The translations under genes and the position numbers were made by a program. A stretch of DNA of 64,000 nucleotides, taken from NCBI RefSeq assembly GCF_003387475.1, contig NZ_QUNO01000017.1, positions 124,001 to 188,000 on the forward strand. The letters are read 5' to 3'. The number at the start of each line of letters is the position of its first letter. The first letter of the stretch is position 1. Of the stretch, positions 8,057 to 58,951 are shown one piece after another. The notes under the pieces are model-generated. The model saw only the letters and a program-made list of their open reading frames with translations. It ran no database searches and was not told where the DNA came from. The stretch is from Kutzneria buriramensis. GTDB taxonomy: Bacteria > Actinomycetota > Actinomycetes > Mycobacteriales > Pseudonocardiaceae.

Positions 8057-9667
8057 TCAAGAGCCGTCTGTCTCCCGCATCCAGTAGGCAAGAGTGGACC
8101 TGGTGATCAGGGAGTGGGGGTGGTCTGGCCCGGAGACGCGTTCACGCACGGGCAGCAGCTCCCGCAGCATCTCGCGCGCCGCGGCTGGATCGCCCGCCTC
8201 GCCGCTGTAGTGGGCGAGGCCGGCGCGAATGTAGAGCGTGTAGGTGTGCTCGGGCCCGGAGACTCGCTCGCGTACCGGCAGCAGTTCCCGCAACATCTCG
8301 CGTGCCCGCACCGCGTCACCCGCCTCCCCGACCCACCGGGCAAGATAGAACCGGGCATTCAACGCAACGGGGTGCTCGGGCCCCAAGACCCGCTCTCGCG
8401 CGAGCAGCACCTCCCGGAACAGGTCGCGCGCCCGCACCGCATCGCCCGCTTCTCCCGTCCACCGGGCGACGCCGAACCGGGCTTCCAGCGCGTCCGGGTG
8501 TTCGGGCCCTACCGCGCCTTCCCGTGCCAGCAACAACTCCCGCATCAGATCGCGCGCCGTTGCGGCATCACCCGCCTCACCAATCCACCGGGCCATGCCG
8601 TACCTGGCAAGCAGCGTGTCGGGGTGTTCGGGCCCCAGCACGCGCTCCAGTAGCGGGAGCAACTCGCGAAACAGGTCGCGGGCGCCCCTTGCATCGCCTG
8701 CCTCCCCGGTCCACCGGGCGACACTGCTCCGAGTGTTCAGTGTGCTGGGGTGTACGGGCCCGGAGATGCGTTCCAGCACCGGCACCAGTTCCCGATAGAG
8801 ATCGCGTGCCGCCACCGCATCGCCCGCTTCCCCGGTCCAGTAGGCGAGGTGGATGCGGGCGTGCAGTGTGTCGGGGTGTTCGGGCCCTAAGACGCGCTCA
8901 TACGCCGGCACCAACGCGCGGTCGAGGTCGCGTGCGGCAGCCGCATCGCCCGCTTCCCCGATCCACCAGGCGATGCCGTACTGGGTGTGCAGGGTGTAGG
9001 GGTGTTCCGGTCCCAGGACTCGTTCACGCACCACCACCAGTTCGCGCAACAGGTCGCGCGCTGTTGCCGCGTCGCCTGCTCGTCCGGTCCACCGGGCGAG
9101 GTTGAATCGGACCAGCAGGGTATCGGGGTGTTCGGGGCCGAGAACGCGATCGCGGACGGGCAGCAGTTGCTGGAACAGGTCGCGCGCTGCCACCGCATCG
9201 CCCGCCTCCCCGGTCCACTGGGCGAGGCTAGCCCGGATCTGCAGAGCCCGGGGGTGTTCGGGCCCCAACACGCGCTCACACACCGGCACCAGCGCCCGGT
9301 AGAGATCGCGCGCCGCGACCGCGTCGCCCGCTTTGCCGGTGTAGGCGGCAAGTCTGGCCTGAGCGGTCAGGGTGTCGGGGTGTTCAGGCCCGGAGACGCG
9401 TTGCAGCACCGGCAGAAGCTCCCGCAGCAGATCACGCGCTGTTGCCGCGTCGCCTGCGTGCCCGGTCCACTGGGCGAGGCTGGACTGGATGTGCAGAGTC
9501 AGGGGGTGTTCGGGCCCCAGGACGCGCGCACGCACCGGCACCAGCACCTGATAGAGGTCGCGTGCCGTCACCGCATCGCCCGCTTCCCCGGTCCAGTGGG
9601 CGAGATTGGACCTGGCGGACAGGGTGTCGGCGTGTTCGGGCCCGAGCCGGTCTTCGTAGACCGTCGC
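8057..9667 (-). repeat. tandem 126-bp TPR repeats (12 full units plus a partial)
   Basis: Twelve consecutive 42-codon units with the consensus RVLGPEHPDTLxAR..LARWTGEAGDA..ARDLxREL, plus a shortened thirteenth at the C-terminus that ends in RETDGS. The DNA copies are very similar in places, so the array can change length by unequal crossing-over or slippage. The protein unit is the TPR_12 type common at the C-terminus of actinomycete STAND proteins. Confidence 0.85.
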
Positions 9668-11361
9668 TAGGCGTTGCCACCAGCTGCGGGCGGTCGCGTA
9701 GTCGCCACTATCGCCAAGGGCAACGGCCAGGCGCCGCATCGGGGTCCCGAGCGGGTCGGCGACCAACTGGGCGTGCGCCAGCAGGGACCGGCAGACCGGC
9801 CACGCCGCTCGGATCGCGACATACTGCGGGACGGCGGCCTCGACCAGGGCCGCGGCCACCGCGCGCCACGCCTGCTGTTCCTGCGGCGGCAACTGGTCGC
9901 GGGTCACGGCCTGCACCAGCCGGTGCACGCTGAACGTCGCCCCCGGCGGCCCGATCAGGCTGTAGAGCCGCAGCCCCGCCACCGCGTCATCCAACGCCAA
10001 CGGTCCCTCGCACAATGCCCGCACCCGTGCGAGAACCTGAGCATCCAGACCCGCCTCGGGCAGTTCGAGGTGGTGCGGCAGCAGCAGCCGGAACGGGATG
10101 TCCTCTGGCGCGAGGAACGCGGCGATCCGCAGCAATGCCAGCGCCCCGGGACTGCTTTCCTCCAGCTCCGCCAATGCCAGCGACCAGGTCGCCACCACCG
10201 GCACCGCGTGCGCGGCCGGCGCCCCACGCGCGAGCACCGCAGCGCGATTCGCGCGCAACAGATCTAGATACTCGGCCAGGCTGCGCCCAGTGGTCTCGAT
10301 GAAGGCCGCGGCCTGCTCCAAAGCCAGCGGCAGCAGACCCAGCTCCTCCGCGACCGCCCGCGCAGACGCCCGGTCCGCGGACATCGTACGGTCGAGCAGG
10401 AATCCGGCCGCAGTTTGCGCATCGAGGGCGGTGACCTCGACGGCTTGCTCGATTGGCCAGTGCCCGTCCTGCGTCGTCACCACCACATGTCCGGTGCCCT
10501 TCGCCGGCAGCCACCGCCGCGCCGCTGCATGATCCTTCAGGTTGTCCAACACGAGCAGCCACCGGCCCGGATGTGCGGCCAGCGCCGCGTGCACCGCCGC
10601 TACCGGATCACCCTCCCCGGCATCAAGCAGCTGCGCCAGCTCGTGGAACTGGGTCAACAGGTCAGTGGCTTGCTCAGCGTGGAAGAACCACACCACCTGG
10701 TAATGCTGCAGCTGCCGGTAGGCGTATTCGAGGGCTGTCGTTGTCTTGCCCACCCCGCCCAGCCGCACAGGGCCACCACCCCGACTCCCCGTGCGGCTCC
10801 AAACCTGGCATGGATATCCGAAATCAGCCCTTCCCGCCCGGCTACCCGACCCGGCCGAGGATCCAATCGCACCGCCTGCCCGGTGCGCGCCCGGCGCTGA
10901 TACACCACCTGCACCGACGCCGCGGTGCCGATCGCGAACCCACCCCCGTCCGCGGACACCCGCACATCCCCACCCACAGCCACGCCGCCAGCTCCTGCCG
11001 ACGCCCCGCCCTGTGCCGCCTGCAGCCGACGCACCAACTCCTCGATCGCTGCGCCGAATACAGCGTCGTGCTCGGTCGCGTCTTCGATCGCCAACGCCAC
11101 TCGCGTCCGTGTCCGCGCCGACGGCTCTACAGCCCCTTGATCCGCTTCTTCGTTCAATCGCGCCAGCGACGCATCGTGGTGCAGCTTGCCCGCCACCAGC
11201 TCATGCAACTTTCCCCCGAGGCGATCGACCGCCGCATCAATCGCTTGATCCACCTGCCCGTCCGCCCGATGAGCGGCCCGCCAGCCCTTCCTTGCAAGCC
11301 AGGCGAACACGTACCCGACCACCAGTTCCGCGCCGACCACCGCGCACCCCCACCCGAGCAC
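8057..11361 (-). pseudogene. NB-ARC/STAND NTPase with twelve TPR repeats, frameshifted in Walker A
   Basis: Two adjoining frames make one protein of about 1100 residues. The upstream frame (11361 to ~10765) has an N-terminal hydrophobic helix (AVVGAELVVGYVFAWLA), a helical region ending IEELVRRL, a GGDVRVSADG strand and the lead into the P-loop (GVVALCG). The downstream frame resumes as LGGVGKTTTALEYAYRQL, through Walker B (RWLLVLDNL), a GLLPLALEQAAAFI motif and then TPRs. Restoring one C near 10761-10764 would give VVALCGLGGVGKTT, so this is a single-base deletion or a sequencing error. A GTG at 10768 could restart the lower frame, but without the strand before the P-loop. STAND-TPR proteins act as ligand-triggered switches in signalling and defence. 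No substrate can be assigned. Confidence 0.8.
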
Positions 11362-12417
11362 ACCGCATCACGACCCTGCGATCCGAGAGTAACTGGCCAG
11401 CCGGCCCACCGCACCGACATGCCCCCTGCAGGACCGTATCGCCGCAGTCGAATCACACTTCGAGGCCGCGCGGGCGACCATCGACACCAACCTCACCGAC
11501 ACCATCCGCGTCATCGACGCCTTCACCCGACACCGCCGCCGCTGGCGACGGCGCGGGCAATGACCGAGATCGTCCGCAACCAGATCTTCTTTTCGTGGTT
11601 TGCCAATGTCTCACCAGTCACCCGATAGAGCTACATGATCGAGTCGCGGCCGCCACCGACTCACAACGACACCGACTTCACCTGAGCGTCCACAGTGGAG
11701 GTCAGTTGTCCTTATCCTTTGTGGACAGCCCGCTTGTCCGTCGCTACCCGGGCAGCATCCAGACACAAGACGGAAATCTACGATCACGTCAACGCGCTAG
11801 CCGACAAATCGGCGGCCCTAACTGGGACTACCGAGGAGGAGTTCGCCGAATTGCGGGCTTGGTGTCCCCGGCAAGGGTTCTGAGCCGCAGGCCGTCAACG
11901 CGCCAGCGTCGGCGAGCTCGCTGGCGAACAGTAGCAGCAGCCACGCCGACAAGACCCACGGCGTCGGGTCAGGACACTTGCATGCAGTCGCTCCTTCTCC
12001 CTCGTACAAGGGAGAAAAAGCAGTGTGCCGGGGCTCGCTAACGTTTCGACCGTGCGTATGTTGGGGCCCAATTTGTCGAACCGGGACCATCGAGCCGAGT
12101 TCGTGTGCAACGATACAGAACGTGACAGCACGGTTACCGCTCCTGGTGGGCGTCCGATGCCTCGGTTCTGCATCGCAACGTAGACGCCGCTGGTCCGGCC
12201 GACCGTAGCGCTGCTCGCAGAGTTCGGGCCGACCTTGTCACAACTCCGGACGCACGCTTGGTCCTTGAAGCGTGTCCGCGTTGAGGTCACGCCATCCGAA
12301 CCCGGCCGCATATGGCGGCCGACTCGACCGGAACGGTGAAGCCGGCTGGCTGGGTTGAACAACTCACGGCCACGCCCACGGTGGGGAACGGGGATAGGGC
12401 ATGGAGGAGGGGCGCGC
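11362..12417. other. intergenic region with gene scraps and a hairpin
   Basis: No intact gene is visible. A plus-strand coding-like tail at about 11429-11563 reads IAAVESHFEAARATIDTNL followed by DTIRVIDAFTRHRRRWRRRG and a stop. A second short tail ends at 11883 (TGTTEEEFAELRAWCPRQGF). An 8-bp hairpin, CGCCAGCG/CGCTGGCG, lies at 11901-11926. Two similar G/C-rich words read on the minus strand at about 12056-12079 and 12217-12240 (GACAA...GGCCC.AAC). These look like remains of former mobile-element genes plus the promoter region of the operon at 12418. Confidence 0.4.
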
Positions 12418-12813
12418 ATGACGTACCTGGTGGAGCTCCCAGTCGGCGAGGCGAACGGACAGCCGCAGACGATCGCCGTCGAGATCGAACAGGCCGAGGA
12501 CGGGTTGGTCCAGGTCTCCCGGCCCGGCGAGGTGGTCGCGCGCGCCGGGCGGTCACTCGGCGAGATGTTGGCCGGTGTCCGGCCGGTAGCAGAGCACTTC
12601 GTGCAGGGATTCCGCGACATGGCAACCGCACCGGACGAGATCGGCATCGAGTTCGGCCTATCCCTTTCCGCCAAGGCCGACGTGATCATCTCCAGCACGG
12701 CAGCCCAAGCCAACTTCAAGGTCACGCTCAAATGGCACAAGCAGCCAGCGGACGAACCCGCCCCATCGAGAGAAGAGCCCACCGCGTCGGCTGTGGAGGA
12801 GCCGACCGAATGA
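12418..12813 (+). CDS. Trypco1 (CU044_2847) family protein
   Basis: 131 residues from an ATG at 12418 with GGAGGAGG about 8 nt upstream; longer upstream frames lack such a site. Sequence MTYLVELPVGEANGQPQTIA, the central RAGRSLGEMLAGVRPVAEHF, DEIGIEFGLSLSAKADVIIS and NFKVTLKWHK are the hallmarks of the trypsin-co-occurring domain 1, a small beta-rich domain (CU044_2847 family). These proteins accompany trypsin-like effectors in predicted NTP-dependent conflict systems. Its stop overlaps the ATG of the next gene by four bases, so the pair is translationally coupled. It probably acts as a partner or regulator of the trypsin-STAND protein; the precise function is not established. Confidence 0.8.
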   Translation: MTYLVELPVGEANGQPQTIAVEIEQAEDGLVQVSRPGEVVARAGRSLGEMLAGVRPVAEHFVQGFRDMATAPDEIGIEFGLSLSAKADVIISSTAAQANFKVTLKWHKQPADEPAPSREEPTASAVEEPTE

Positions 12814-15800
12814 CGACACCAACGCCTCCTGTCCCTGAGAACGCCGGCCCCGGCTCCATGTACGCCGCCATGCTGCGGATCTCCGCCGCGTCGGACAGCC
12901 CGGTGGGGCTGGGCTTCATGGTCACCGACCAGCTCGCGCTCACCTGCGCGCACGTGGTGGCTAAAGCGATGGGCATCAAGGACGGTGCCCCGCCACCAGA
13001 GGGCGCCACTGTCAAGGTCGACCTCCCCCTACTGGGGGCTGGGCAGGGCACCACAGCAAGTATCGAGCAGTGGGTTCCCGCACAGGCCTCGGGGAACGGG
13101 GACGTGGCCGTGCTGCGCCTCAACAGCCCATTGCCCGGCGCTCGTCCGGTCCGGCTAGTCGAGGCGGGCCAAGTGTGGGGGCACCCGGTCCGGGCCTACG
13201 GCGTGCCGGTGGGGCGCCCTGGCGGTGTGTGGCACAGCGGCGTACTGCGGGATCGACAGGGCAACGACTGGCTACAAGCAGACCTGGCCGGGGACGGATA
13301 CCGGGTTTCCCCAGGGTTCAGCGGTGGACCGGTATGGGACGACGAACTCGCCGGCGTGGTCGGCATGATGGCAGTGGCCGAATCCGGGGAGCCACCGGTC
13401 AGCTACTTGATCCCCACCTCCGGCCTGCTGGCGGCCTGGCCCGGCCTGCGTGAATTGGTGGCACCGCCGTCACCGTTTCGGGGACTGCGTCCGTTCCTGG
13501 AAGCCGACACAGCGATCTTCCACGGCAGGCGGGCCGAGCGCGACCAGGTAGCGCAGATCGTGGCCCGCCAGCGATGGACCACCCTTGTCGGGCCGTCCGG
13601 CTGTGGCAAGTCCTCACTGGCCATGGCAGGGGTCGCCCCGCTGCGGCGGTCGGCCGGCGACACGCCTGTGGTGATGCGGCCCGGCCACCACACCAGCCCG
13701 CTGCACGCTCTGGCGGCCGCGCTGCTGCCGCTACTGGAGCCCGACCTGTCCGAGACGCAGCGGTTCACCAAGATTTCCGAACTGGCGAGCGTGCTGGCCC
13801 AGCAGGGGCTGCACGAGATCGCGCCCCGCATCCTGGAACTGCACACCGCTGACCGGCTGCTGGTAGTGGTCGACCAATTCGAAGAACTGCTCGACCTCCT
13901 CCCCGACGCAGTCGACGAGTTCACCCATGCGCTGTTCGGCGACGACACCCCGGCTGCGGTCAAGGTCCTGTGCACGCTGCGGGCCGACTTCCTCGAACCG
14001 ATGCTGGCGCATCCTCGCCTCGGGCCGATCGTAAGCGAGCACGTCTGTGCCCTCGAACCGATGCGCGCCGAACAGTTGCACGAGATCATCACCAAGCCCG
14101 TCGACGAGATTCCGGGCGTGCGCTACCAGCCGAACTTGGCCGAGCGCATCCTGGCTGACGCGGGCACCGAACCTGGTGCCCTGCCGCTGCTGGGCTTCAC
14201 CCTCGACCTGTTGTGGGAGGGACAGGTCAAACGGCAGGACAACGGCGTGCTCACCCACCACGCCTACGAGGAGATCGGCGGCGTCGCCGGCGCGCTCGGG
14301 AAATACGCCGAACGCGCCTGGGCTGAGAACATCCCCGCGCAAGACGAGCAGGCCGCCACACGCCTGCTCACCCAACTGGTACGGGTCCCGATCGGTGCCA
14401 CGGCGCCCACCCGCCGCATCGCGTCGCGGGCAGAACTGGGAGAGCACGAGTGGCGCATCGCCCAACGGCTGGCCGCCACCCGACTGCTGGTCCTCACCGC
14501 CGGCGAGGGCCACGAGACCGTGGAACTCGCCCATGAGGCGTTGATCACCAGCTGGGACAGGCTCAACCACCAGATCGTGGCCGACCGGTCGTTCCTGGAC
14601 TGGCGTGAGTCCCTACGGCACGACCTCGACCGCTGGCAGCGTAGCGAGCGTGTCCTCGATCTGCTGCCGACCCCCACCGCGCTGGTTGTCGCGGGGCAGT
14701 GGCTGCCCGAGCACGCACGCGATCTCAGCGAGGCTGAACGCGACTACCTCGACCGCGGCCGCGTCTACCGGCGCAGGCAGACCCGCAGACGCCGAGCCGG
14801 GTTCACCGCGCTCGTGATCGTCGTGGTGGCGGCGTTGGTGCTTGGTTCGCTGTTCGCGTATGCGCAGCAGCAGAGCACCAAACATCAGGCCGAGGCCAAC
14901 TCTCGGGCGCTGGCGCAAGCATCACAGGACAATGCGGACTACGACCCTGCGCTGTCGATCATGACGGCGCTGGCCGCCTATCAGACCTCGCCCACCCATG
15001 AGGCGCGCAATCAACTGTTGCGCCAGTACCTGGAGCATTCGCATTCCGGGCGTGTGCTGTCCGGGCTGTCGGGCAAGATCGCGGCGTTCCACACGAGCCG
15101 GGACGGCAACGTGGTGCTCGCCGCCACGGACCTCGACCGCGCGACGCTGTTCGTCCACGCCGCCACGGGCACGGTACGCAGCGAACCGGTGGCCGTCGGC
15201 CACTACGCGGCCTACACACTGGTTTCGCCGGATGGCAAGCGAGCTGCCTTCGTCGAGGACGACGGAACCGCGGGATGGTTCGATGTGAATCCCGATGCTG
15301 CCCAACCGGCCGGGCCTATACACCTTCTGCCCAAGGTCACAGGGCTGGTCCAAGCAGAACCCTTCACCGACGCGGCGGTGGCGATGTCGGCGGACGGGAG
15401 GCTGATCGCCGTACACACCGACGGCCACCTGGCGTGGTGGGATCTGCAAACCGGCACCATCGCTGGATCGGTGCCCGAGCCTGCGAACACGAACATCGGT
15501 CTGTGGATCGGCCCCGATGACCGGACGCTGCTGGTCACAACACTCGACAGCCAAGGCTTGAACGGTGTGACCGGCTTGGTCGCCGTCGACATGGCGACTG
15601 GCCGGACGCGGACCGTGGTGGCTCCGGCGACGCATCAACATTTCCTGGTCTCCGGTGATCGGTCAGGGGTGGCGGTATGCCAGGAGCAGGGCGACGGGTC
15701 GTCCGTTCTTCTCCGACTGGAGCGGGTCTCCGACGGCGCCGCGGAAGGGATCCCATCCCGTCTGCAGTCCTCCAGTTGCACGCATCTGCTGGCCATCGAC

Positions 15801-17108
15801 GCGACCGGGCGGCGGGTTGTCCTGAACGACACCGCACTGACCTTGGTGGATTTGGACGATGGCACCAGCGTCTCGTCCGCCGCCTCGGTGCCTCGCGACC
15901 AGAGCTACACCTCAGACCTGATATCGACCGGCGGAAAGCTGCTTCTCGCTGGTCAGGGGGACGCGAAGATCACCTACACCGCGTTGAATACCAGCCCGCA
16001 GGGCGATGTGGTGAGCGACCAACGGCTTACCGATGGAGGTAATAAGGTGATCACCCTTCTCCACGGCGGCTCGCTGCAACTGAGGCTCGCGGGCGCGGAC
16101 GATCGGTTGCTCGCCGAGGCACCCGGCCCGCAATCTCCGTGGTGGGACCTCGCCAGTCACAACCAACTTCGCCTCAGCAGGGACAGAGGACTGGTAGCCG
16201 ACCAGGAGAACGTGAACGTCGTGTCGGTTCACGAAACATCCACCCTGCGGCTGACGACCCGGATCACCACAGCCATGCCGCCCACCAGTGACCACGCTGG
16301 TGACCTGGACCCGAAAAACCACTTCAACTACTTCTTCGACTGGACCGGAAACCTGGTAACCGTCTCCGGCATGCAGGTACAGCAGTGGGATGCACGAACA
16401 GGTCGGCAACTCGCACGCCTCGATCTCGGTGCCCTCCTGCGCGCCGCTGGCGACGTTGTCTCAGATGTCCTGGACGGGTCGGATCCCGGAGTCGGTGTCT
16501 ACCCTGGCGCGAATCTGGTATGGCTAACCTACCGCGGTGATCCTGTCGTCCGCATCGTGGACCTGGCGACAGGTCGGACGGTGACAACGGTGCGGACTGT
16601 CGCCGACGCTGGCAGCCTTAGTTTCGACCCTAGTGGGCGCTACTTCGCGCTGCTGCGGCAGTCCTCGATCCTTGAACTATGGCAGCGGGACCCACCACTC
16701 AGGGAACTTGGCCCTCTCCACAGCGTCTCCGACGCCAGCCGGTCGCCGGCGGTCGGCGGCTTCCTCGACGGAAATGGCCACTATCTGGTCGCGGCCAACG
16801 ATGCCATCCGCATCTATCAGATCGGGCAGCAAGCCCCCATGGACTCCTACGAGTTCGGACATCCCGACGGCAGCCAGCAACAGAACCCTTACGTGTTCAG
16901 AGATTTCTCCCCGGACGGCACGACCGTGGTCTACGCCGAGGGCGACGGCATCGGCGGCGCGGGCATCGGCGGCCCGCTGACCCTCGATCCTGCCGTGTGG
17001 GAGCGTGACCTGTGCCGCATCATCGGCTACCGCACCTTCACCGCCGACGAACAGGCCAGCCTGCCGGCCACCATCCCCACGCAGAAGGTGTGCCCAGCGA
17101 CGGGGTAG
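12810..17108 (+). CDS. trypsin-STAND-WD40 conflict-system protein
   Basis: 1432 residues; the ATG at 12810 overlaps the Trypco1 stop. Domains in order: a trypsin-like protease with a complete triad (His48 in LTCAHVV, Asp98 in GNGDVAVLRL, Ser171 in GFSGGPVW); a novel-STAND NTPase starting SPFRGLRPFLEADTAIFHGR with Walker A GPSGCGKS at 261-268 and Walker B LVVVDQFEEL near 351-360; a winged-helix region (ELAHEALITSWDRL); one transmembrane helix near 665-685 (ALVIVVVAALVLGSLFAYA); and a WD40-type beta-propeller of about 700 residues. This matches the predicted counter-invader or self-killing systems in which a propeller sensor and STAND switch license a protease. The membrane helix separates the protease/NTPase from the propeller, so the sensor may be extracytoplasmic. 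Confidence 0.85.
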   Translation: MTTPTPPVPENAGPGSMYAAMLRISAASDSPVGLGFMVTDQLALTCAHVVAKAMGIKDGAPPPEGATVKVDLPLLGAGQGTTASIEQWVPAQASGNGDVAVLRLNSPLPGARPVRLVEAGQVWGHPVRAYGVPVGRPGGVWHSGVLRDRQGNDWLQADLAGDGYRVSPGFSGGPVWDDELAGVVGMMAVAESGEPPVSYLIPTSGLLAAWPGLRELVAPPSPFRGLRPFLEADTAIFHGRRAERDQVAQIVARQRWTTLVGPSGCGKSSLAMAGVAPLRRSAGDTPVVMRPGHHTSPLHALAAALLPLLEPDLSETQRFTKISELASVLAQQGLHEIAPRILELHTADRLLVVVDQFEELLDLLPDAVDEFTHALFGDDTPAAVKVLCTLRADFLEPMLAHPRLGPIVSEHVCALEPMRAEQLHEIITKPVDEIPGVRYQPNLAERILADAGTEPGALPLLGFTLDLLWEGQVKRQDNGVLTHHAYEEIGGVAGALGKYAERAWAENIPAQDEQAATRLLTQLVRVPIGATAPTRRIASRAELGEHEWRIAQRLAATRLLVLTAGEGHETVELAHEALITSWDRLNHQIVADRSFLDWRESLRHDLDRWQRSERVLDLLPTPTALVVAGQWLPEHARDLSEAERDYLDRGRVYRRRQTRRRRAGFTALVIVVVAALVLGSLFAYAQQQSTKHQAEANSRALAQASQDNADYDPALSIMTALAAYQTSPTHEARNQLLRQYLEHSHSGRVLSGLSGKIAAFHTSRDGNVVLAATDLDRATLFVHAATGTVRSEPVAVGHYAAYTLVSPDGKRAAFVEDDGTAGWFDVNPDAAQPAGPIHLLPKVTGLVQAEPFTDAAVAMSADGRLIAVHTDGHLAWWDLQTGTIAGSVPEPANTNIGLWIGPDDRTLLVTTLDSQGLNGVTGLVAVDMATGRTRTVVAPATHQHFLVSGDRSGVAVCQEQGDGSSVLLRLERVSDGAAEGIPSRLQSSSCTHLLAIDATGRRVVLNDTALTLVDLDDGTSVSSAASVPRDQSYTSDLISTGGKLLLAGQGDAKITYTALNTSPQGDVVSDQRLTDGGNKVITLLHGGSLQLRLAGADDRLLAEAPGPQSPWWDLASHNQLRLSRDRGLVADQENVNVVSVHETSTLRLTTRITTAMPPTSDHAGDLDPKNHFNYFFDWTGNLVTVSGMQVQQWDARTGRQLARLDLGALLRAAGDVVSDVLDGSDPGVGVYPGANLVWLTYRGDPVVRIVDLATGRTVTTVRTVADAGSLSFDPSGRYFALLRQSSILELWQRDPPLRELGPLHSVSDASRSPAVGGFLDGNGHYLVAANDAIRIYQIGQQAPMDSYEFGHPDGSQQQNPYVFRDFSPDGTTVVYAEGDGIGGAGIGGPLTLDPAVWERDLCRIIGYRTFTADEQASLPATIPTQKVCPATG

Positions 17109-18605: not shown

Positions 18606-19361
18606 TCAACGCCGGCGCAGATCCATGCCTGCGATCAGCACAGCGGTCGCCGATGTAGCCAGTCCGCAGGTCATCAGCGCGAGACCGACCTCAGAGGGCT
18701 CGCGGAACGCTGCGGCGAAAGACTGCACCGCGGCGACTGCCAGACCGGTGGCGACGAACATCAACGCGAGGTGCAGCCGCGGCCCACTCGGCATCGCGAC
18801 GACCCGGCCCGCGCGCGCCACGAGCACGCAGAGCCTGATCCCGCCGAAGCACAGCGTCACCCAATAGCAGACCAGTAAGAGGACCCGCACCGGGCAGACT
18901 GGACTATCCAGTGATCCGAGGTTGGCGACCAGGCACAGCGCGGCGAACAGCAGGCCCGGCGGGGCAAGCGTACGGGCGGCAACGGCGACCAGACGACCGA
19001 GCACGGGAACGCTGAGCGCTGGCGACGGCACAGCCAGGACAACGCCGGTCAGAATCGGGATGAGCCAGGCACTGCTGGCCGGGTGGTCGATGTTTGCGGT
19101 CAGGGGACCGGCGCCGGCCGCGCGCAGTGACAGCGTCAGCACCACGCCGACGGCGACCAGTGCCGTGGCCACCACACGAGAGGTTTGTCCCGCAACGGTT
19201 TCCGGCCAGTCACTGGGGTGCAGCCACAGCTTCCCGGCGCCGACGGCGGTGTTGAACCACGAGCGTGGGCCGGCCCGGTCCACCTCGTCGGCGATGTCGC
19301 TGCCCCACCGCTCGCGAATCGCCGGTGGGTAGAGCCGGATCAACACGGCTGACGCTCTCAT
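18606..19361 (-). CDS. integral membrane protein coupled to PadR regulator
   Basis: 251 residues. A cytoplasmic N-terminus (RASAVLIRLYPPAIRERWGSD, typical of proteins encoded beside PadR genes) is followed by about six hydrophobic helices (VVATALVAVGVVLTL, AWLIPILTGVVLAV, GLLFAALCLVAN, VLLLVCYWVTLCFGGI, LALMFVATGLAVAAV, LALMTCGLATSATAVLIAG). It overlaps the PadR stop by four bases, so the two are co-translated. PadR/membrane-protein pairs are widespread in actinomycetes and often respond to envelope stress or drugs. The transported or sensed molecule is unknown. Confidence 0.7.
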   Translation of the reverse strand: MRASAVLIRLYPPAIRERWGSDIADEVDRAGPRSWFNTAVGAGKLWLHPSDWPETVAGQTSRVVATALVAVGVVLTLSLRAAGAGPLTANIDHPASSAWLIPILTGVVLAVPSPALSVPVLGRLVAVAARTLAPPGLLFAALCLVANLGSLDSPVCPVRVLLLVCYWVTLCFGGIRLCVLVARAGRVVAMPSGPRLHLALMFVATGLAVAAVQSFAAAFREPSEVGLALMTCGLATSATAVLIAGMDLRRR

Positions 19362-19660
19362 GCCGGCGCGGGGCCCAACGCGCGCAGGCCAGCTTGAGCG
19401 ACGCGCGCCATCTGTTCGAGCTCGGCGCGCAGGGCGGTGCGACCGGTGTCGGTGATGCGCACCGTCCGCCGCTCATCGGTGTCCGATGACGACGGCTCGA
19501 TCAACCCGTGTGATTCGAGGCGGGCGAGCGCGCCGTAGAGGCTGCCGGGACGCAGTCGACTCCCGGTCAGTGCCTCGATCGCGGTGTTGATGGCGTAGCC
19601 GTGCTGAGGCCCCTGTGCGAGGACTGTGAGCACCAGCATCTGGGCGTCGTTGCTCCGCAT
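19358..19660 (-). CDS. PadR-family transcriptional regulator
   Basis: About 100 residues from the ATG at 19660, which has AAGGAG 5 nt upstream; a longer start at 19687 has no ribosome site and would run into the operator region. The PadR winged helix is clear: MLVLTVLAQGPQHGYAINTA, GSRLRPGSLYGALARLESHG (recognition helix) and ERRTVRITDTGRTALRAEL. PadR proteins are dimeric repressors released by small ligands. The palindrome at 19701-19719 in the divergent promoter is the likely operator, giving autoregulation and control of the esterase gene at 19728. Confidence 0.85.
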   Translation of the reverse strand: MRSNDAQMLVLTVLAQGPQHGYAINTAIEALTGSRLRPGSLYGALARLESHGLIEPSSSDTDERRTVRITDTGRTALRAELEQMARVAQAGLRALGPAPA

Positions 19661-19686
19661 GCGTCTCCTTCGTGCCGGTCTCATCA

Positions 19687-19727
19687 TAGTACGTGCCGCG
19701 TAGTACGCGTCGCGTACTATCGTCTAT
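19687..19727. promoter_or_regulatory. palindromic operator for the PadR regulator
   Basis: Between the divergent PadR and esterase genes lies a perfect 9-1-9 inverted repeat, TAGTACGCG-T-CGCGTACTA (19701-19719), plus an extra half-site TAGTACG at about 19687. It sits 8 bp before the GTG of the esterase, where bound protein would block transcription or initiation. Assignment to the PadR protein is by position. Confidence 0.65.
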
Positions 19728-20939
19728 GTGAAGCGATGGTTGCGCACCCTGCTGCTGTTCGTGCTCGCGATCGTCCTGGCGACCGGCGGATATGTCGCCT
19801 ACGTCGCGGTCAGGTCGGCGCAGCCGGTGACACTGCCGGCCCCCACCGGCCCCTATCCGGTCGGTCGCGCCATTCTCGATTGGACGGACCACGCGCGCAG
19901 CGATCCGCTCGCCCCGCGCCCCGACACGCCACGGCAACTGTCGGTCTGGCTGTGGTACCCCGCCGCCCGCAGCGCTGCCCTCGTCCCCGCGCCGTACGCT
20001 CCTGGCGCGTGGGCGGGCCTCCATCTCGGCGGACTGGCCGGACTGGCTGAGACGGGCTTCGACGACCTCCACGGTCACGCGGTCGCCGACGCCCCCGCCG
20101 CCGAGGGCAGGTTTCCCGTCGTCGTTCTGGAACCTGGCCTGGGATTCGCCGCGCCGCAGTACAGCACGTTGGCCGAAAACCTCGCCAGCAATGGATACTT
20201 CGTCGTCGGCGTCACGCCCACCTACAGCGCGAACCTGACCGTCCTCGACGGCAAGCCCGTTTCCGCAACCGAAGCCGGCAATCCCCCGGCAGCCTTCGAC
20301 GGCCCCGACCAGCACTCCGGGCAGGCTCAGATCGTCGGCGACCGACTGATCGAGGTGTGGGCTGCCGACGACCGCTTCGCGGCCGCGCAGACCCTCACGC
20401 TGAACACGGTCGGCCCCTTCGCGGCGCACCTCGACACCACCAAGATCGTGTACCTCGGACACTCCTTCGGCGGCGCCGCCGCGCTCGAAGCCTGCCGCAC
20501 CGACCAGCGTTGCGCCGGCGCAGCCGACCTCGACGGAACACAGTACGGCCCGGTCGTCCAGGCCGGACTGAACAAGCCGATGCTCCTGATCGGCAGCGAG
20601 AACTCCTGCATCACCGGCACCTGCCGACCGGCGGGCGGCGGGGACCAGTCCACCCTCACGACCGCCCATGCGTTGTTGGCCGCGAGCCGCGGGCCGACGT
20701 GGTGCTACCAACTCAACGGCGCCGAGCACTTCAACTTCAGCGACTACGGCGTCTACTACGTCGCCGCACCCATCCGATCCCAGCTCGCACTCGGCGCGAT
20801 CGACGGCGCCGACGCGCTCACTATCACGAACGCCTACCTGACCGCGTTCGTCCGGCAGGTGACCAGCGGCCGCACCGAACCCCTCCTGACCAGCCGGACG
20901 ACGCCGTACCCGCAGGTGGCGGTCCAACACACACCATGA
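19728..20939 (+). CDS. PAF-acetylhydrolase-like alpha/beta hydrolase, membrane-anchored
   Basis: 403 residues. An N-terminal signal-anchor (LRTLLLFVLAIVLATGGYVA) is followed by an alpha/beta hydrolase similar to the platelet-activating factor acetylhydrolase (PF03403) group: RQLSVWLWYPA, PVVVLEPGLG (oxyanion strand), nucleophile elbow GHSFGG near residue 245, an acidic residue in GAADLDG and a likely catalytic His in NGAEHFNFSD near 333. Such enzymes hydrolyse short-chain or oxidised phospholipid esters outside the cytoplasm. It is divergent from, and probably repressed by, the PadR protein. The substrate is inferred from the family only. Confidence 0.75.
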   Translation: MKRWLRTLLLFVLAIVLATGGYVAYVAVRSAQPVTLPAPTGPYPVGRAILDWTDHARSDPLAPRPDTPRQLSVWLWYPAARSAALVPAPYAPGAWAGLHLGGLAGLAETGFDDLHGHAVADAPAAEGRFPVVVLEPGLGFAAPQYSTLAENLASNGYFVVGVTPTYSANLTVLDGKPVSATEAGNPPAAFDGPDQHSGQAQIVGDRLIEVWAADDRFAAAQTLTLNTVGPFAAHLDTTKIVYLGHSFGGAAALEACRTDQRCAGAADLDGTQYGPVVQAGLNKPMLLIGSENSCITGTCRPAGGGDQSTLTTAHALLAASRGPTWCYQLNGAEHFNFSDYGVYYVAAPIRSQLALGAIDGADALTITNAYLTAFVRQVTSGRTEPLLTSRTTPYPQVAVQHTP

Positions 20940-21151
20940 CTCCAGCGGAATGCCGAATCCGAAGTAGGGCGCCGATTTCGCGAAGAGACAGGAGATTCGA
21001 CGCACAAGCTATCAGCCAGCCTTTGACGGTTGATGGGGCCCAGGATCTGCTGGACCACCGCCACTGATGTCCGCCGGACCAGCGAACCGAGGCTCCTGCC
21101 GAGCTGCCCAACCGGCTGATCGCCGACCGGGGATTCTCGGGCGGGGACATC

Positions 21152-29388: not shown

Positions 29389-32300
29389 TCAGTCCAGGAA
29401 GAACGCGTACGGCTCGTAGCGCTGGACAAGGTTCTTCAGCTGGGTGATCTGGTCGGCGTGCAGGCCGATCGTGTCGACGAGCACGTAGTTCGCCTTGTTG
29501 CCCTGATGGGTGTTGACGGCCTGGCGTACCTGCTCGGCGATGGTCTGGGCGTTGAAGTTGTTCGGGTCGAACGGCCCCAGCACGCTGTAGGTCATGCCGT
29601 CGGCGCCGACCCAGGCCGGCCCTGAGCGCAGCGGCCAGCGGAACAGTTTGACCCCGAGCCGGTTCTGGATGGCCACGGCCAGATCCTGTTGGTGCTGCTG
29701 GAAGGCCCCGTCGAGATTGGGGTCCATGCCCAGTCGCTTGAGCCGGTCGGCCTCGCTCATCCCGGCGAACCGGTTGGCCTCCTCCTCAACCAGCGAGTCC
29801 TTCACCTCTTCGGTTTCCAATTCCCGCCACTGATCCCAACCCTCCTCGAAGAGCGCCGCCGTCGGGCCGTTGATCGCCACGGCCACGCCGATCTTCTGCC
29901 AGGTGGTGGCGGCGAGCTCGGAGAGCTGCTCGGTGATGTAGCTCCACTGGGTGAACGCGGCGTCCGCCGCACCACCGCAGAACTCGAGTAGCCCGACGCA
30001 GATCATCGCGGAGTCGAGGAGCGCCTCGCCGCCGCCGACGGCGGAGATCATCTGGCTCAAGGCATTGGTCTGGAACAGGAACTGGTCGGTGCCGAAGGTC
30101 GGCGACTGCGCGTCCATGGCGCAGTTCTCCTGGTACTTGCCGGGGTTAATGAAGCGCTGGCAGAACATACCGCGGCCGTAGATGTCCTGGAGGCGGTGCT
30201 GGGGGTCGTCCCCGGCGAACTGCACGCAGTCCGCGTAGTTCGACTGGCCGCCGACCGCCTTGGCCGCCTGGCAGGCATCCTTCATCTCGGAGGCCTGTTG
30301 CGCCCGCTCGTCGTTGACCTTCCGCACCGCCGCGTCGCGTGCCGTGTTGGCGGCGTCGATCGCCGCGACGGTGTCCTTGCCCGCCGCGACCGCCGAGTCG
30401 TACGCCGCGTGCCAAGCGGCGACCGCGGTGTTGGCGAAGCCGTAGGCCCGGTTCGCGGACACGTTGGCCCGCACCGCGAACCACTGTGCCTGCTTGGCCG
30501 ACTGCTCCGCGCGCTGCGCGGCCTGCCGGGCCGTGTCGGCCGACGCCTGGGCGTCCGCGGCCGACTGCGCCGCCCTGACCGCCGAGTCGTGGGCCTGCGC
30601 GGCGTAGTCCGCGGCCTGGGTGGCCGAGTCCCTGGCCTGCTGCGCCCACTGCGCCGCCTGATCGGCCGCGTTCCGCGCGATCGCGGCCACCTGCTGGGCT
30701 GTGTCGGCGTCTGCCGTCGCGGTGGCCGCCGCGCTGGTGGCCTGCTGTAGCAGGCCCAGCACCTCGGCGTCGTGGTCGGCTGCCTCCCGGTCGTGGCGGA
30801 TCGAGATGTACTGTCCCGCCTCGATGAACTGGTGCAGGTATCCGGACGGGCCGTCTAATGCCGCCTGCGCCATACCCTTGGTCTCCGGGCCGCTGTTCGG
30901 ATCGGCGATCAGCTGGTTGGCGGCCAGCCGGTCGTCGTTGCCCGCCGCAGAGTACTGGCCGGTGGTGACGAACGCGTGCAGCGCGGCGTCGGTGCCGGCG
31001 TCCAGCGCCCGCTGCGCCTCGGTCTTCACCGTGGGGCCGCCGGCCGCCATGATCTGGTTGGTCTGGATCCGTTCGTCCTTGGCGCGGTCCGGATAGGTTG
31101 GATTCACCAGGAAGGCGTGCACCCCGGCGTCCGGGCCCTTGGTCACGGAGTCGATGGCGGCCCGGAGTCCGTCGGTGCCGTTGTCGCCGACGGTCTGCAG
31201 CGTCTCGCGATCGTCCTGCGCCGCAGCGATGTTCACGCCGTCACGGACGTAGGCGACCGCCTCGGCGTCGGACGCGGCCAGCGTGGCCAGGGCTGCCGAC
31301 CGGCTCCATGGCCCGCCGGACGACGCCAGCCGCAGAGCGACTTTGCGGGCGTCGGCCACGACCACCGACTGGGCGGTGCCGGCGGCGTTCGCCTCGGTGA
31401 GCAGGCGGTTGGTCTCGGCGTCGCGCTTGCTGTCCTGTGGTGCGTCCCACGCGGTGTCGAAGTGCAGCGTGTCGGCGTTGGCCTTGGCCGCGATCGCGGC
31501 GTCGTCGGCCTGGCCCACGTTGGTCGCGATGCGGGCGGCGTCCGCCTGAGCCGCGGCGTCGTGGATCTGCTTGGCCTGGTTGGCCGCATCGGTTGCGCGC
31601 TGGGCGGCCGCCGAAGCGGCGTTCGCATGATCGGTCGCCTCCTTCGCGGCGTCGGCGGCATGTCCGGCGTGGTCGGCGGCGTCGTCGGCCGCCGCCGCGG
31701 CCGCGACCGCGTCGGCCGCCGCCCGTTGGGCCGCGTCCCTCGACGCGAAGGCCGCGTTGGCGGCGACCGTGGCGAAGGCCTGCGCGGCGTTGGCTGCCGA
31801 GTCGGCGCGGACGGCCTGCGCACGCGCCCGGCTCGCGGCCGCTTCCGCGGCGCTGGCGTCCGCTCCGGCCCGCTTGGCGAAGGTCACCGAGTCGGTCGCC
31901 GCCTGGGCCGCCGCCGTGGCGTGGCCGCTCGCGTCGCGGGCGGCACTGGCCGCGTTGTACGCCTGCTGCGCCGCCTGACCGGCCGCATCGGCGGCATCGG
32001 CGGCCTGGCTGGCCCCCGTGGCGACGTCTCGGGCGGCCTGCGCGGCCTGCCGCGCGTCGCTGGCCTTGCTGGCGTCGCCGGCGGCCGCCGCTGCGGCCTG
32101 CTGGGCCCGTGACGCCGCGCCGCCGGCCAGCGACGCCGCGTTCGCCGCCCGGGCGGCGGCGGATGCCGCGCCACGGGCGGCGGTGCTGGCGGCGTTGGCC
32201 GCGCCGATCGCCACTCGGGCTGCGTCGGCGGCGTGGTTGGCGGCGTCGGCGGCACGGTTGGCTGCCGCGGCGGCGTCGGCGGCGTTGTGCTGAGCGGATT

Positions 32301-33132
32301 CCGTGGCCTGCTCAGCGGCCACGGCCGCCTGCCGGGCCATCTCCGCCTCGACGACCGCGCGCTGGGCGGCGTCCTTGGCGGCCTGGGTTTGCTGTGCGGC
32401 TTCGGTCTGCGCGTCCTTGGCCGCCGCAGCCAGTTGGGAGACGCTGGCGGTTTCCTGGTCCCGGGCCTGCGCGACGGCGAGTTCGGAGGTGAGGAGCAGC
32501 GCGTAGGCGTTGGGCGTGCCGGTGTCGAGGGCGACCTGCGCGGCCGCCTTGACGGCGTTGCCGCCGCCGGCCACCAGCTGGTTGATCCGGATCCGGGTGT
32601 CGGTCAGCCAGGGGTTCACCCAGCCGTCGGTGAGGAACTTGCGCAGCGCGTCGGCGGACCCGTCGTCCAGCGCCTGCTGCCCGGCCGCGTGCTCGTTCGG
32701 ACCGGCGGCGGCGATCAGCTGGTCGACCTGGAGCCGTTCGTCCTGTTCGGATGGTCCTTGCCAGCCGTTGTCCAGGAACCCGGCCAATGCGCCGGAGTCA
32801 GTCGAGTCGAGCGCGGTCTGCGCCGCGGACCCGACCGCCGGGCCGCCGGCGGAGATCATCCGGTTGACCGCGAGGCGGCGGTCGATCTGATCGGCCGGAT
32901 TCAGCCCGTGGGCGAGGAAGTCCGCCACGTCGGCGTCGGTCCCCACCAGGGCGCGCTCCGCGCCGGCCTTCACCTGCGGGCCGCCGGTCTGCCACAGCAT
33001 CAGCACCGTGTCACGCGGCGAGGCGGCCGCACCGGGCGGTGGTGTGTCGGCGTGCACGGCCGGCGCCTGCGTCAGTGCGGCCACCAGGCTCAGGCCGAGC
33101 CCAGTGGCGAGTAGTCGTCTCATCGGATACAT
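29389..33132 (-). CDS. secreted ALF-repeat, alanine-rich coiled-coil protein with toxin-like C-terminus
   Basis: 1247 residues; ATG 33132 has AGGGGA 6 nt upstream. Signal peptide MYPMRRLLATGLGLSLVAAL cleaved near VHADT. Residues 40-210 carry ALF short repeats (a DG..LxxFLxxGW.....DxRLxxxQLxAAGG pattern, several copies). Residues ~215-520 and 800-960 are extremely Ala-rich heptad-like coiled coils; another ALF block lies between. The last ~250 residues change character: a Cys-containing hydrophobic segment (LLDSAMICVGLLEFCGGAAD), a charged helix, and a compact end with WVGADGMTYSVLGPFD and ANYVLVDTIGLHADQIT. ALF-coiled-coil proteins of streptomycetes are exported, often with variable C-termini, so this tail may be a nuclease-type toxin (CdiA-C-like; inference). 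No immunity gene is obvious downstream. Confidence 0.75.
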   Translation of the reverse strand: MYPMRRLLATGLGLSLVAALTQAPAVHADTPPPGAAASPRDTVLMLWQTGGPQVKAGAERALVGTDADVADFLAHGLNPADQIDRRLAVNRMISAGGPAVGSAAQTALDSTDSGALAGFLDNGWQGPSEQDERLQVDQLIAAAGPNEHAAGQQALDDGSADALRKFLTDGWVNPWLTDTRIRINQLVAGGGNAVKAAAQVALDTGTPNAYALLLTSELAVAQARDQETASVSQLAAAAKDAQTEAAQQTQAAKDAAQRAVVEAEMARQAAVAAEQATESAQHNAADAAAAANRAADAANHAADAARVAIGAANAASTAARGAASAAARAANAASLAGGAASRAQQAAAAAAGDASKASDARQAAQAARDVATGASQAADAADAAGQAAQQAYNAASAARDASGHATAAAQAATDSVTFAKRAGADASAAEAAASRARAQAVRADSAANAAQAFATVAANAAFASRDAAQRAAADAVAAAAAADDAADHAGHAADAAKEATDHANAASAAAQRATDAANQAKQIHDAAAQADAARIATNVGQADDAAIAAKANADTLHFDTAWDAPQDSKRDAETNRLLTEANAAGTAQSVVVADARKVALRLASSGGPWSRSAALATLAASDAEAVAYVRDGVNIAAAQDDRETLQTVGDNGTDGLRAAIDSVTKGPDAGVHAFLVNPTYPDRAKDERIQTNQIMAAGGPTVKTEAQRALDAGTDAALHAFVTTGQYSAAGNDDRLAANQLIADPNSGPETKGMAQAALDGPSGYLHQFIEAGQYISIRHDREAADHDAEVLGLLQQATSAAATATADADTAQQVAAIARNAADQAAQWAQQARDSATQAADYAAQAHDSAVRAAQSAADAQASADTARQAAQRAEQSAKQAQWFAVRANVSANRAYGFANTAVAAWHAAYDSAVAAGKDTVAAIDAANTARDAAVRKVNDERAQQASEMKDACQAAKAVGGQSNYADCVQFAGDDPQHRLQDIYGRGMFCQRFINPGKYQENCAMDAQSPTFGTDQFLFQTNALSQMISAVGGGEALLDSAMICVGLLEFCGGAADAAFTQWSYITEQLSELAATTWQKIGVAVAINGPTAALFEEGWDQWRELETEEVKDSLVEEEANRFAGMSEADRLKRLGMDPNLDGAFQQHQQDLAVAIQNRLGVKLFRWPLRSGPAWVGADGMTYSVLGPFDPNNFNAQTIAEQVRQAVNTHQGNKANYVLVDTIGLHADQITQLKNLVQRYEPYAFFLD

Positions 33133-33142
33133 GTCCGTCCCC

Positions 33143-33673
33143 TCAGGGATTCGCCGTCAGCTGGAGCAAGGTGGTGGGCGCCGCGCCGGGGCCGGTGCCC
33201 TGGCCGACGGGGGTGCTTCCGCTCGGATTGACGTCCACTGTGGACTGTGCGCCGGCGTCCGTGGTGAGCTTGGCTTTGACCTTGTGGCCGGCACCGGGGG
33301 CGTAGCCGTCGCCGCGGATCTCGAAGACTGCGGGGATCTGCACCTGCACGGTGCCGCTGGTTTCCGTGACCTTGAAGCAAATCACGCCGTCGTGCTTGGC
33401 GCCGATAGCCTGCGACGAATGCACCTGCACCAGACCGATGTCGCCGGTGCGCGGGGTGGCGCAGTCCGCGAAAAGGACGTGCCCGTCGCCGGAAATCAGC
33501 CGGACACCGGTATCGGCGAAGATCTGGTCCGCGCCGGGGTAGCTGAAGTCCTCGACCGTGGATGGCTGCTGGTCAGCGGCGCCGTCGGCGACGGCGGTCG
33601 CGACCCCGCCGGCAACCGAGGCGGCCGCCAGCACGCCGACCACCAACGCGGCCGTCAGATAACGCTTCATCAT
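33143..33673 (-). CDS. exported protein of unknown function
   Basis: 176 residues with a clear signal peptide (MMKRYLTAALVVGVLAAASV, cleavage near AVADGA) and GGAGA upstream of the first ATG. The mature part has two Cys (FADCATP and GVICFKV) likely forming a disulfide, and a beta-rich body (VRLISGDGHVLFADC, GTVQVQIPAVFEIRGDGYAP). I do not recognise the family. It lies 10 bp upstream of the ALF-repeat gene and 52 bp downstream of the pseudo-protease, all on one strand, so the three form an exported operon. Confidence 0.7.
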   Translation of the reverse strand: MMKRYLTAALVVGVLAAASVAGGVATAVADGAADQQPSTVEDFSYPGADQIFADTGVRLISGDGHVLFADCATPRTGDIGLVQVHSSQAIGAKHDGVICFKVTETSGTVQVQIPAVFEIRGDGYAPGAGHKVKAKLTTDAGAQSTVDVNPSGSTPVGQGTGPGAAPTTLLQLTANP

Positions 33674-33725
33674 GTTCTCCGATTCTCGGGAGCCGCGACC
33701 TCGCGGTTCCGGGTGCCCTTTGTGG

Positions 33726-35333: not shown

Positions 35334-35591
35334 TCCATTCTCTCCCTGTTGTGAATTGACCACCACTCAGGTATGCCGCTCGCACGACGACGCAGACCGC
35401 AACGGGGAAAGTTGGTCATGCCGGGTCCGGCGACCACAGCTCCTTGATCAGGAACCAGGAGGAAGGTCACCCCGCTTCGACCACGATGGCCGACCATGTG
35501 AGCACAGACTTTGTGAACTCATTGAACGGACTGGTCAGAGCTGGTATCCAGGCAACGAGGTGCATGGGGGTTCAGGGGGAGGGATCCGCGC

Positions 35592-43852: not shown

Positions 43853-44051
43853 GTGTACCCCCTTGAGATTTCCCCGACTTCCCCGCCACCAGCGTCACCA
43901 TCACCGTTGACAGCGCACTTGCGGTTCTCTTGCCGTACCCGCGTGGACTAGACCGATCGGGAGACAATCCCGATTTTGCGGTGGTGGCGCCCACTCACTG
44001 GTGCACACTGGAAATCCGAAGTCTGGAGGTGACCAGCGAAGGGCGGCGCTG

Positions 44052-48726: not shown

Positions 48727-49161
48727 TTATGCACCCGGCAACACCGTCAGCAACCGCCGCCCCCGCACCGAAGCGATATAGCCGTCATCTTGAACAACGA
48801 TCACTATTCCTGTAGCTGGCGAGACGACGAATACACTGGCGTACATAAAATAATCCCGCACTCGAACATGGAACGTCTTCACAAATTCAGCCAGGTCGAC
48901 CGCATCCACAAAGAACGGACCTTGATCGGAATCGAAGCTTGTACTATTGACGACGATTAGAGGACCCTCAAGTTCGACACACCGCGACAGAAAGTCGTCC
49001 TCAATAGCGTCCGCATCGCGCCGCTCAATATCAAACGACTCCCAAGCCTCTCTCGATATACCAACGATTCGATCGTGATCGTATGCCGTCGAGCCAGGCA
49101 GGACCGCAGCGAGCACGCCTTCCGCGAAGCCCCAATTCACGTGACGCTTTATTGATGTCAT
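48727..49161 (-). CDS. predicted immunity protein for the RHS/HINT toxin
   Basis: 144 residues: MTSIKRHVNWGFAEGVLAAV, RIVGISREAWESFDIERRDA, PLIVVNSTSFDSDQGPFFVD, YASVFVVSPATGIVIVVQDD, ending LLTVLPGA. It is soluble, acidic and without a signal peptide. Its ATG overlaps the stop of the toxin gene by four bases (ATGA), the usual linkage of polymorphic toxin and immunity. No recognised immunity family. Base composition is lower in G+C than the neighbours, as in the toxin tip at 49158-49510, so both probably arrived together. Confidence 0.7.
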   Translation of the reverse strand: MTSIKRHVNWGFAEGVLAAVLPGSTAYDHDRIVGISREAWESFDIERRDADAIEDDFLSRCVELEGPLIVVNSTSFDSDQGPFFVDAVDLAEFVKTFHVRVRDYFMYASVFVVSPATGIVIVVQDDGYIASVRGRRLLTVLPGA

Positions 49162-58847: not shown

Positions 58848-58951
58848 GGAAAATCTCCCCCTTGAATGTGTCCGCCGCGCGAGACGGCGCACGGGACAGG
58901 ATGAGGCAACAAGGCCGGTAAAGGCAAGGTGAAATCACGCCTAACACGCCT

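What the first reader, a model, noticed from the sequence alone, without database searches (positions are those of the whole stretch)
12418..17108. Trypco1 plus trypsin-STAND-WD40 two-gene conflict system
A coupled pair: a small Trypco1 protein and a 1432-residue protein with an intact protease triad (His48/Asp98/Ser171), complete Walker A and B, a membrane helix and a large WD40 sensor. This architecture is known from comparative genomics as a predicted anti-invader or self-killing device, but members are scarcely tested. The membrane helix between NTPase and propeller implies a surface-facing sensor, which is unlike cytosolic Avs-type STANDs.
Basis: partly seen in the sequence, partly recalled or inferred. 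Interest (0 to 1): 0.75.

Follow-up and report, generated by a model that had tools for sequence, protein, structure and literature searches.

The report
Membrane-spanning NLR-like protease with outside sensor
Two neighbouring genes in a large-genome actinobacterium encode a small helper protein and a membrane-anchored protease switch that resembles animal and plant NLR immune receptors, but whose sensor appears to sit outside the cell, so it may detect threats at the cell surface; what it actually does is untested.

Summary
Window 12418-12813 encodes Trypco1. Overlapping it by ATGA, 12810-17108 encodes a 1432-aa protein: trypsin-like peptidase, nSTAND1 NTPase, one membrane helix (665-683) and, by fold search, a double beta-propeller. 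Triad H48/D98/S171 and Walker motifs are intact here and in all 32 aligned rows. The pair recurs: in 11 of 12 plasmid records holding most of the large protein, Trypco1 is adjacent; one plasmid has two tandem pairs. The helix has an arginine-rich N-terminal flank in 22 of 22. A C-terminal cysteine pair is in 28 of 28 complete rows, and a second pair in 17 of 22, although the sensor is only 18-42% identical to the window's; post-helix cysteine number is even in 27 of 28. The C-terminal pair recurs in 36 of 38 and 23 of 28 other nSTAND1-TM proteins, where parity is less strict. Best reading: a receptor-protease whose extracytoplasmic, disulfide-stapled propeller controls a cytosolic STAND/trypsin module, with Trypco1 as cytosolic partner. 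An anti-invader role is inferred from relatives, plasmid carriage and one apparent sensor replacement; nothing here tests it. Some homologues lack adjacent Trypco1. New variant of a known kind.

The parts
12403..12410 (+). ribosome-binding-site-like GGAGGAGG before Trypco1
   Evidence: read
12418..12813 (+). Trypco1 protein, 131 aa
   Evidence: PF19493 6e-25; CU044_2847 family
12810..12813 (+). ATGA overlap of the two genes
12810..17108 (+). trypsin-nSTAND1-TM-double propeller protein, 1432 aa
12906..13367 (+). trypsin-like peptidase domain (residues 33-186); triad codons H48 12951-12953, D98 13101-13103, S171 13320-13322
   Evidence: triad conserved
13473..14651 (+). nSTAND1 NTPase (222-614); Walker A 13590-13613, Walker B DQFE 13872-13883
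14802..14858 (+). membrane helix, residues 665-683, Arg-rich N-terminal flank
14835..15035 (+). helices running from the end of the membrane helix to the propeller (residues 676-742)
   Evidence: predicted structure
15045..16982 (+). 52 predicted strands, double WD40-like propeller (residues 746-1391)
15678..15779 (+). first cysteine pair, C957 (15678-15680) and C990 (15777-15779)
   Evidence: both present in 17 and both absent in 5 of 22
17013..17093 (+). C-terminal cysteine pair, C1402 (17013-17015) and C1428 (17091-17093)
   Evidence: 20 of 20 full-length members; 28 of 28 complete rows

Best explanation
A single-pass receptor-protease. Its C-terminal double propeller is exported by the internal membrane helix and held by two disulfides outside the membrane; the nSTAND1 NTPase and the trypsin domain stay in the cytoplasm with Trypco1. 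I propose that a ligand at the cell surface (phage particle, competitor protein or envelope damage) changes the propeller, the signal passes through the membrane helix, nSTAND1 exchanges nucleotide and oligomerises, and the clustered trypsin domains become active and cleave cytosolic targets, halting or killing the cell. Trypco1 most likely binds the trypsin/STAND part as regulator or adaptor. Shown by sequence: domains, intact catalytic residues, charge asymmetry, cysteine pairing pattern, recurrence of the gene pair. Inferred: the disulfides themselves, ligand, oligomerisation, substrate, outcome, Trypco1's action.
For: Triad intact in 57 of 57 Trypco1-paired trypsins (one of 58 dropped for a poor domain cut, its triad is intact) and 32 of 32 family rows. 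More K/R on the N-terminal than the C-terminal flank of the helix in 22 of 22 and in the 10 further trypsin-nSTAND1 rows. C-terminal Cys pair in 28 of 28 complete rows. C957/C990 both present or both absent in 22 of 22. Post-helix Cys count even in 20 of 20 and in 7 of 8 further complete rows; counts before the helix are 11 odd, 9 even. Other nSTAND1-TM proteins: C-terminal pair in 36 of 38 from own genome, genus, family and order (chance about 2% each at 8 Cys per 1000) and in 23 of 28 from a named-genome scan. TM-less Trypco1-paired WD40 proteins L097, L113, L175: 5, 17 and 15 cysteines, no such pair. Own genome encodes VKOR (role in disulfide formation recalled). Gene pair on plasmids, with tandem pairs in NZ_CP109179. 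L241: trypsin 49%, nSTAND1 55%, sensor 18% identical.
Against: No direct topology or function data. No PADLOC match. Parity is not universal: L252 has five post-helix cysteines, and 11 of 38 and 5 of 28 other nSTAND1-TM proteins have odd counts; 2 of 38 and 5 of 28 lack the C-terminal pair. The spacing limit was widened after seeing the data, and 9 of 37 complete proteins were left out there (weak helix or under 300 aa after it). A fourth TM-less Trypco1-paired WD40 protein, L174, has just two cysteines in its short tail, 44 apart. In the second alignment L241 shows only one cysteine of the first pair. The sequences are related, so counts are not independent. The structure gave no Cys-Cys distances. 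Trypco1's divergence follows nSTAND1 (partial r 0.61) and not trypsin specifically (partial r about 0). Homologues without an adjacent Trypco1 exist. Most plasmids fetched are typed non-mobilizable (6 of 8). No defence island was shown.
Confidence: 0.5

Rival explanations
1. Same topology, but an ordinary signalling receptor (envelope stress, development, cell-cell recognition) whose protease processes a regulator; not an immune device.
For: nSTAND1-TM proteins are common: nine others of the own genome were read, all with the helix. Nothing invader-specific was seen beside the pair among the 18 window proteins scanned.
Against: Patchy occurrence, plasmid carriage and fast-changing sensors; a shortened relative of the gene in another genus, G018; Trypco1, trypsin and nSTAND1 parts recur in predicted conflict systems (literature passages).
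Confidence: 0.25
2. Toxin-antitoxin-like pair: Trypco1 is the inhibitor of a constitutively dangerous protease.
For: ATGA overlap; adjacency in 11 of the 12 plasmid records that hold most of the protein, the twelfth (Embleya) not checked and several of the 11 near-identical; tandem pairs.
Against: Intact-triad homologues without an adjacent Trypco1 (L125, L245, L250), although their genomes carry Trypco1 elsewhere (G006; L245 and L250).
Confidence: 0.15
3. Cytoplasmic propeller: the helix only anchors the protein, or is buried, and the sensor reads cytosolic phage proteins as Avs does.
For: All tested STAND defence receptors known to me sense inside the cell (recalled).
Against: Charge asymmetry and conserved cysteine pairs.
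Confidence: 0.1

Closest known systems
vWA-MoxR-VMAP ternary conflict systems with Trypco1/Trypco2 (Kaur 2020, PMC7159879; passages read)
   Same: Trypco1 gene next to a trypsin-like peptidase
   Different: here no VMAP; the trypsin is fused to nSTAND1, a membrane helix and propellers
nSTAND1 systems with trypsin or caspase effectors (Kaur 2021, PMC8195603; passages read)
   Same: effector domain, nSTAND1 switch, variable further domains
   Different: the passages read do not mention the membrane-spanning layout or cysteine pairs
CARD-NLR systems: LypABC of Caulobacter and the Lysobacter gasdermin system (PMC13236601; passages read)
   Same: LypA has a trypsin-like peptidase domain followed by an ATPase domain; LypABC are needed for GTA-mediated lysis, and the Lysobacter system for abortive infection
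   Different: no CARD found here; extra membrane helix and propeller
Apaf-1 apoptosome
   Same: STAND NTPase with double WD40 propeller (fold match) and protease output (recalled)
   Different: Apaf-1 is cytosolic and recruits caspases (recalled); here the protease is fused and the sensor appears to be outside
Avs STAND receptors
   Same: effector-STAND-sensor logic (recalled)
   Different: no PADLOC match of any kind; cytosolic sensors (recalled)

Membership tests
Trypco1 family | PF19493 above the curated cut-off | tested here: met
   88.1 against 24.6 bits
nSTAND1 clade | PF20703 above the curated cut-off with intact Walker A and B | tested here: met
   313.7 against 27.1 bits; motifs
Active trypsin-like peptidase | His-Asp-Ser triad in a Trypsin_2 domain | tested here: met
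Active trypsin-like peptidase | measured proteolysis | not testable with these tools
   no assay
VMAP ternary system | VMAP-C domain on the peptidase protein | tested here: not met
   none; the genome's three VMAP-C hits lie on C2, C24 and C16, not on the window's contig C17
VMAP ternary system | adjacent MoxR ATPase and vWA genes | tested here: not met
   none among 18 window proteins scanned with Pfam; not every window ORF was scanned
CARD-NLR system | N-terminal CARD-like bundle before the peptidase | tested here: not met
   only 32 residues precede the Trypsin_2 match and Pfam finds nothing there
Avs | match to PADLOC models (that PADLOC holds Avs models is recalled) | tested here: not met
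   no PADLOC hit at 0.001
Single-pass membrane protein, N-in/C-out | one strong hydrophobic helix with positive N-terminal flank | tested here: met
   (8 K/R before, 1 after, in 15 residues each)
Single-pass membrane protein, N-in/C-out | experimentally mapped topology and disulfides | not testable with these tools
   no experiment
Anti-phage defence system | protection on phage challenge | not testable with these tools
   no experiment

The most novel reading that the evidence does not exclude
nSTAND1-TM-propeller proteins are a broad class of transmembrane NLR-like receptors in which a disulfide-stapled propeller outside the cell controls an ATP-driven effector inside. Here the effector is a trypsin with a Trypco1 partner, giving bacteria a surface-sensing counterpart of the apoptosome that acts before or during adsorption rather than after phage entry.
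Probability: 0.35. Interest if true: 0.85.

Novelty: new variant of a known kind. Interest (0 to 1): 0.55.

Why it matters
STAND/NLR receptors are usually thought of as intracellular sensors (recalled). If the propeller is outside, bacteria have STAND proteins that convert an extracellular cue into cytosolic proteolysis in one polypeptide. The cysteine pairs make this directly testable, and the two-gene pair is convenient for a first experiment on Trypco1, for which the searches made found no test.

Tried and rejected
Structure of Trypco1 (mean pLDDT 68.8, beta-beta-alpha-beta-beta): no PDB match at E 0.001, so its fold gives no function. PDB sequence searches of both proteins: none at the limits used. 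Phage records: no Trypco1 at E 0.01. Rfam and tRNA: nothing in the window.

Co-evolution: distances of Trypco1 and trypsin correlate (r 0.82 over 57 pairs), but in 19 nSTAND1-type pairs the correlation with trypsin vanishes once nSTAND1 is controlled for, so it does not single out the protease as binding partner. One search gave wrong values because wrong stretches were cut as the trypsin domain of plasmid proteins; one search replaces it (one of 58 pairs, L234b, dropped).

Empty-site test: the 10 kb left of the pair has only short matches (up to about 550 bases) in six other genomes of the genus. A block to the right (18610-20945) occurs in G001 without the large gene in the 16.5 kb fetched, and part of it in G006, but in other neighbourhoods, so no clean insertion site was shown.

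Rejected: pseudogene (motifs intact); membership in VMAP, CARD-NLR or Avs (see membership test).

Full report
Observation. Trypco1 (12418-12813) scores far above the Pfam cut-off. The large gene starts just before Trypco1's stop codon (ATGA, 12810-12813) and encodes 1432 residues with a Trypsin_2 domain, nSTAND1, one hydrophobic helix and a long C-terminal part. WD40 profiles match that part only weakly, but its predicted structure (8 sequences, mean pLDDT 77.3) has helices and then 52 strands, and its best fold matches are tandem WD40 propellers and Apaf-1 (low TM-scores, so single propellers rather than their arrangement are matched).

Family. Of 95 distinct Trypco1 sequences, 48 have a trypsin gene within about 700 bases on either strand. 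Most loci were fetched with only about 4 kb upstream, so this is a lower bound; three loci fetched with more show a trypsin frame about 5-6.5 kb upstream (L075, L078, L086). Among partners scanned with Pfam the trypsin is fused to nSTAND1, VMAP (L156, L173, L111), TM-less NTPase-WD40 (L097, L113, L175, L174) or CHAT-TPR (L178). Trypco1 therefore goes with trypsin-bearing systems, whatever the switch.

Conservation. An alignment of 22 trypsin-nSTAND1 proteins (the window, nine plasmid copies, twelve from genomes) has the triad, Walker A G261/K267/S268 and D355 in 22 of 22; adding ten from named genomes gives 32 of 32 rows (L247 repeats L163). Identity to the window ranges from 34 to 64% in trypsin, 33 to 59% in nSTAND1 and 18 to 42% after the helix. 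L241 is 49% and 55% identical in the first two but 18% in the sensor, and its sensor is only 16-22% identical to each of the other 18 compared, which reads as a sensor replacement.

Topology, for. In all 22 the helix has more K/R on its N-terminal than on its C-terminal flank (window 8 against 1), as in the ten further rows. C1402/C1428 are present in all 20 full-length members and in 28 of 28 complete rows (four early-ending or cut rows set aside: L096, L101, L246, L249). C957 and C990 are both present in 17 and both absent in 5 of 22. Cysteine counts after the helix are even in 20 of 20 (17 with four, 3 with two), against 11 odd and 9 even before it. Among 39 other nSTAND1 proteins from own genome, genus, family and order, 38 have the helix; all 38 have the charge asymmetry and 36 the C-terminal pair; the one without a helix, L224, lacks the pair. 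In the named-genome scan, 28 complete non-trypsin proteins with helix show the asymmetry in 26 and the pair in 23. Three TM-less Trypco1-paired WD40 proteins have 5, 17 and 15 cysteines in the comparable part, with no such pair. The genome encodes VKOR, and oxidative folding of exported proteins in Actinobacteria is described (PMC9974433, search listing only).

Topology, against. L252 has five post-helix cysteines, so parity holds in 27 of 28 complete rows (26 of 27 distinct). In the wider sets the count is odd in 11 of 38 and 5 of 28, and 2 of 38 and 5 of 28 lack the C-terminal pair. The spacing limit was widened after inspection, and 9 of 37 complete proteins were left out of it. L248 and L251 lack C957/C990 but have two other cysteines 6-7 residues apart. 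In one search L241 shows one aligned cysteine at C990 and none at C957, an uncertainty in its divergent sensor. A short TM-less WD40 partner, L174, has two tail cysteines, 44 apart. The sequences are related, so counts are not independent. I still conclude that the propeller is probably extracytoplasmic; the pairs carry the argument more than parity does.

Cassette. In the eight plasmid regions fetched the pair is the constant element. Three of them (L235, L236, L237) also share a nearby asnB, MFS and iron-transport block, so those are not independent settings; the other five share no listed neighbour that I noticed. NZ_CP109179 has two pairs in tandem. Transposase genes lie near two. Six of the eight plasmids are typed non-mobilizable and two mobilizable. 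In the window's genus the best other match is 37% identical over residues 19-959 (L008/L125). G018, in another genus, holds what looks like a shortened gene: 57% identity to residues 1180-1431 and a separate piece like residues 11-58.

Trypco1 is not obligatory. Of ten trypsin-nSTAND1 rows, six have Trypco1 within the locus (up- or downstream); L245 and L250 have none nearby, L246 shows only a remnant-like start (my reading), and L249 ends early and shows none. L125 has none in 18 kb. The genomes of L245, L246, L249 and L250 carry Trypco1 elsewhere, as does G006, the genome of L125, so action in trans remains possible.

Prior work. Searches for 'Trypco1' and 'trypsin-co-occurring' found two papers between them, and 'nSTAND1' two; three papers in all, passages read. 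Further searches added PMC13236601, passages read; of the 413 papers only 12 were listed. None of the passages read describes the membrane-spanning trypsin layout or the cysteine pairs; the 2024 paper predicts periplasmic NACHT and CLec domains for one of its proteins. Subscription papers and preprints were not searchable, so absence from print is not established. The closest tested relative by architecture that I found is LypA.

Verdict. Real, intact, recurrent; a new variant of a known predicted conflict system with good indirect sequence evidence for an outside sensor and no functional evidence.

Noticed in passing
window 8057-11361, minus strand: FxSxx-COOH system TPR protein (NF040586) appears split into two overlapping frames near its P-loop: frameshift or sequencing error.
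   Followed up: no
window 49158-58892, minus strand: 3244-aa RHS-repeat protein with pretoxin HINT domain: a polymorphic-toxin-like protein.
   Followed up: no
window 35592-38972, 40277-42445, 44001-47012, plus strand: Three NB-ARC/TPR proteins, two with BTAD activator domains, in one stretch.
   Followed up: no
window 29389-35366, minus strand: ALF-repeat protein of 1247 aa and a trypsin/DUF346 protein.
   Followed up: no
L234 7600-17216: Two tandem Trypco1 plus trypsin-nSTAND1 pairs on a Streptomyces plasmid.
   Followed up: partly
L259, L260, L271, L281, L284: In these Chloroflexi nSTAND1-TM proteins the C-terminal cysteine pair is present but closer together (9-13 residues) than in Actinobacteria (about 25); two other Chloroflexi loci, L287 and L290, have it about 25 apart.
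   Followed up: partly
L113, L175, L097, L174: TM-less trypsin-WD40 proteins beside Trypco1, presumably cytosolic counterparts.
   Followed up: partly
G000:C6:389351 (L075): Another Trypco1 of the same genome, about 6 kb downstream of a 485-aa trypsin frame and on a contig without a VMAP-C hit; its system was not identified.
   Followed up: no
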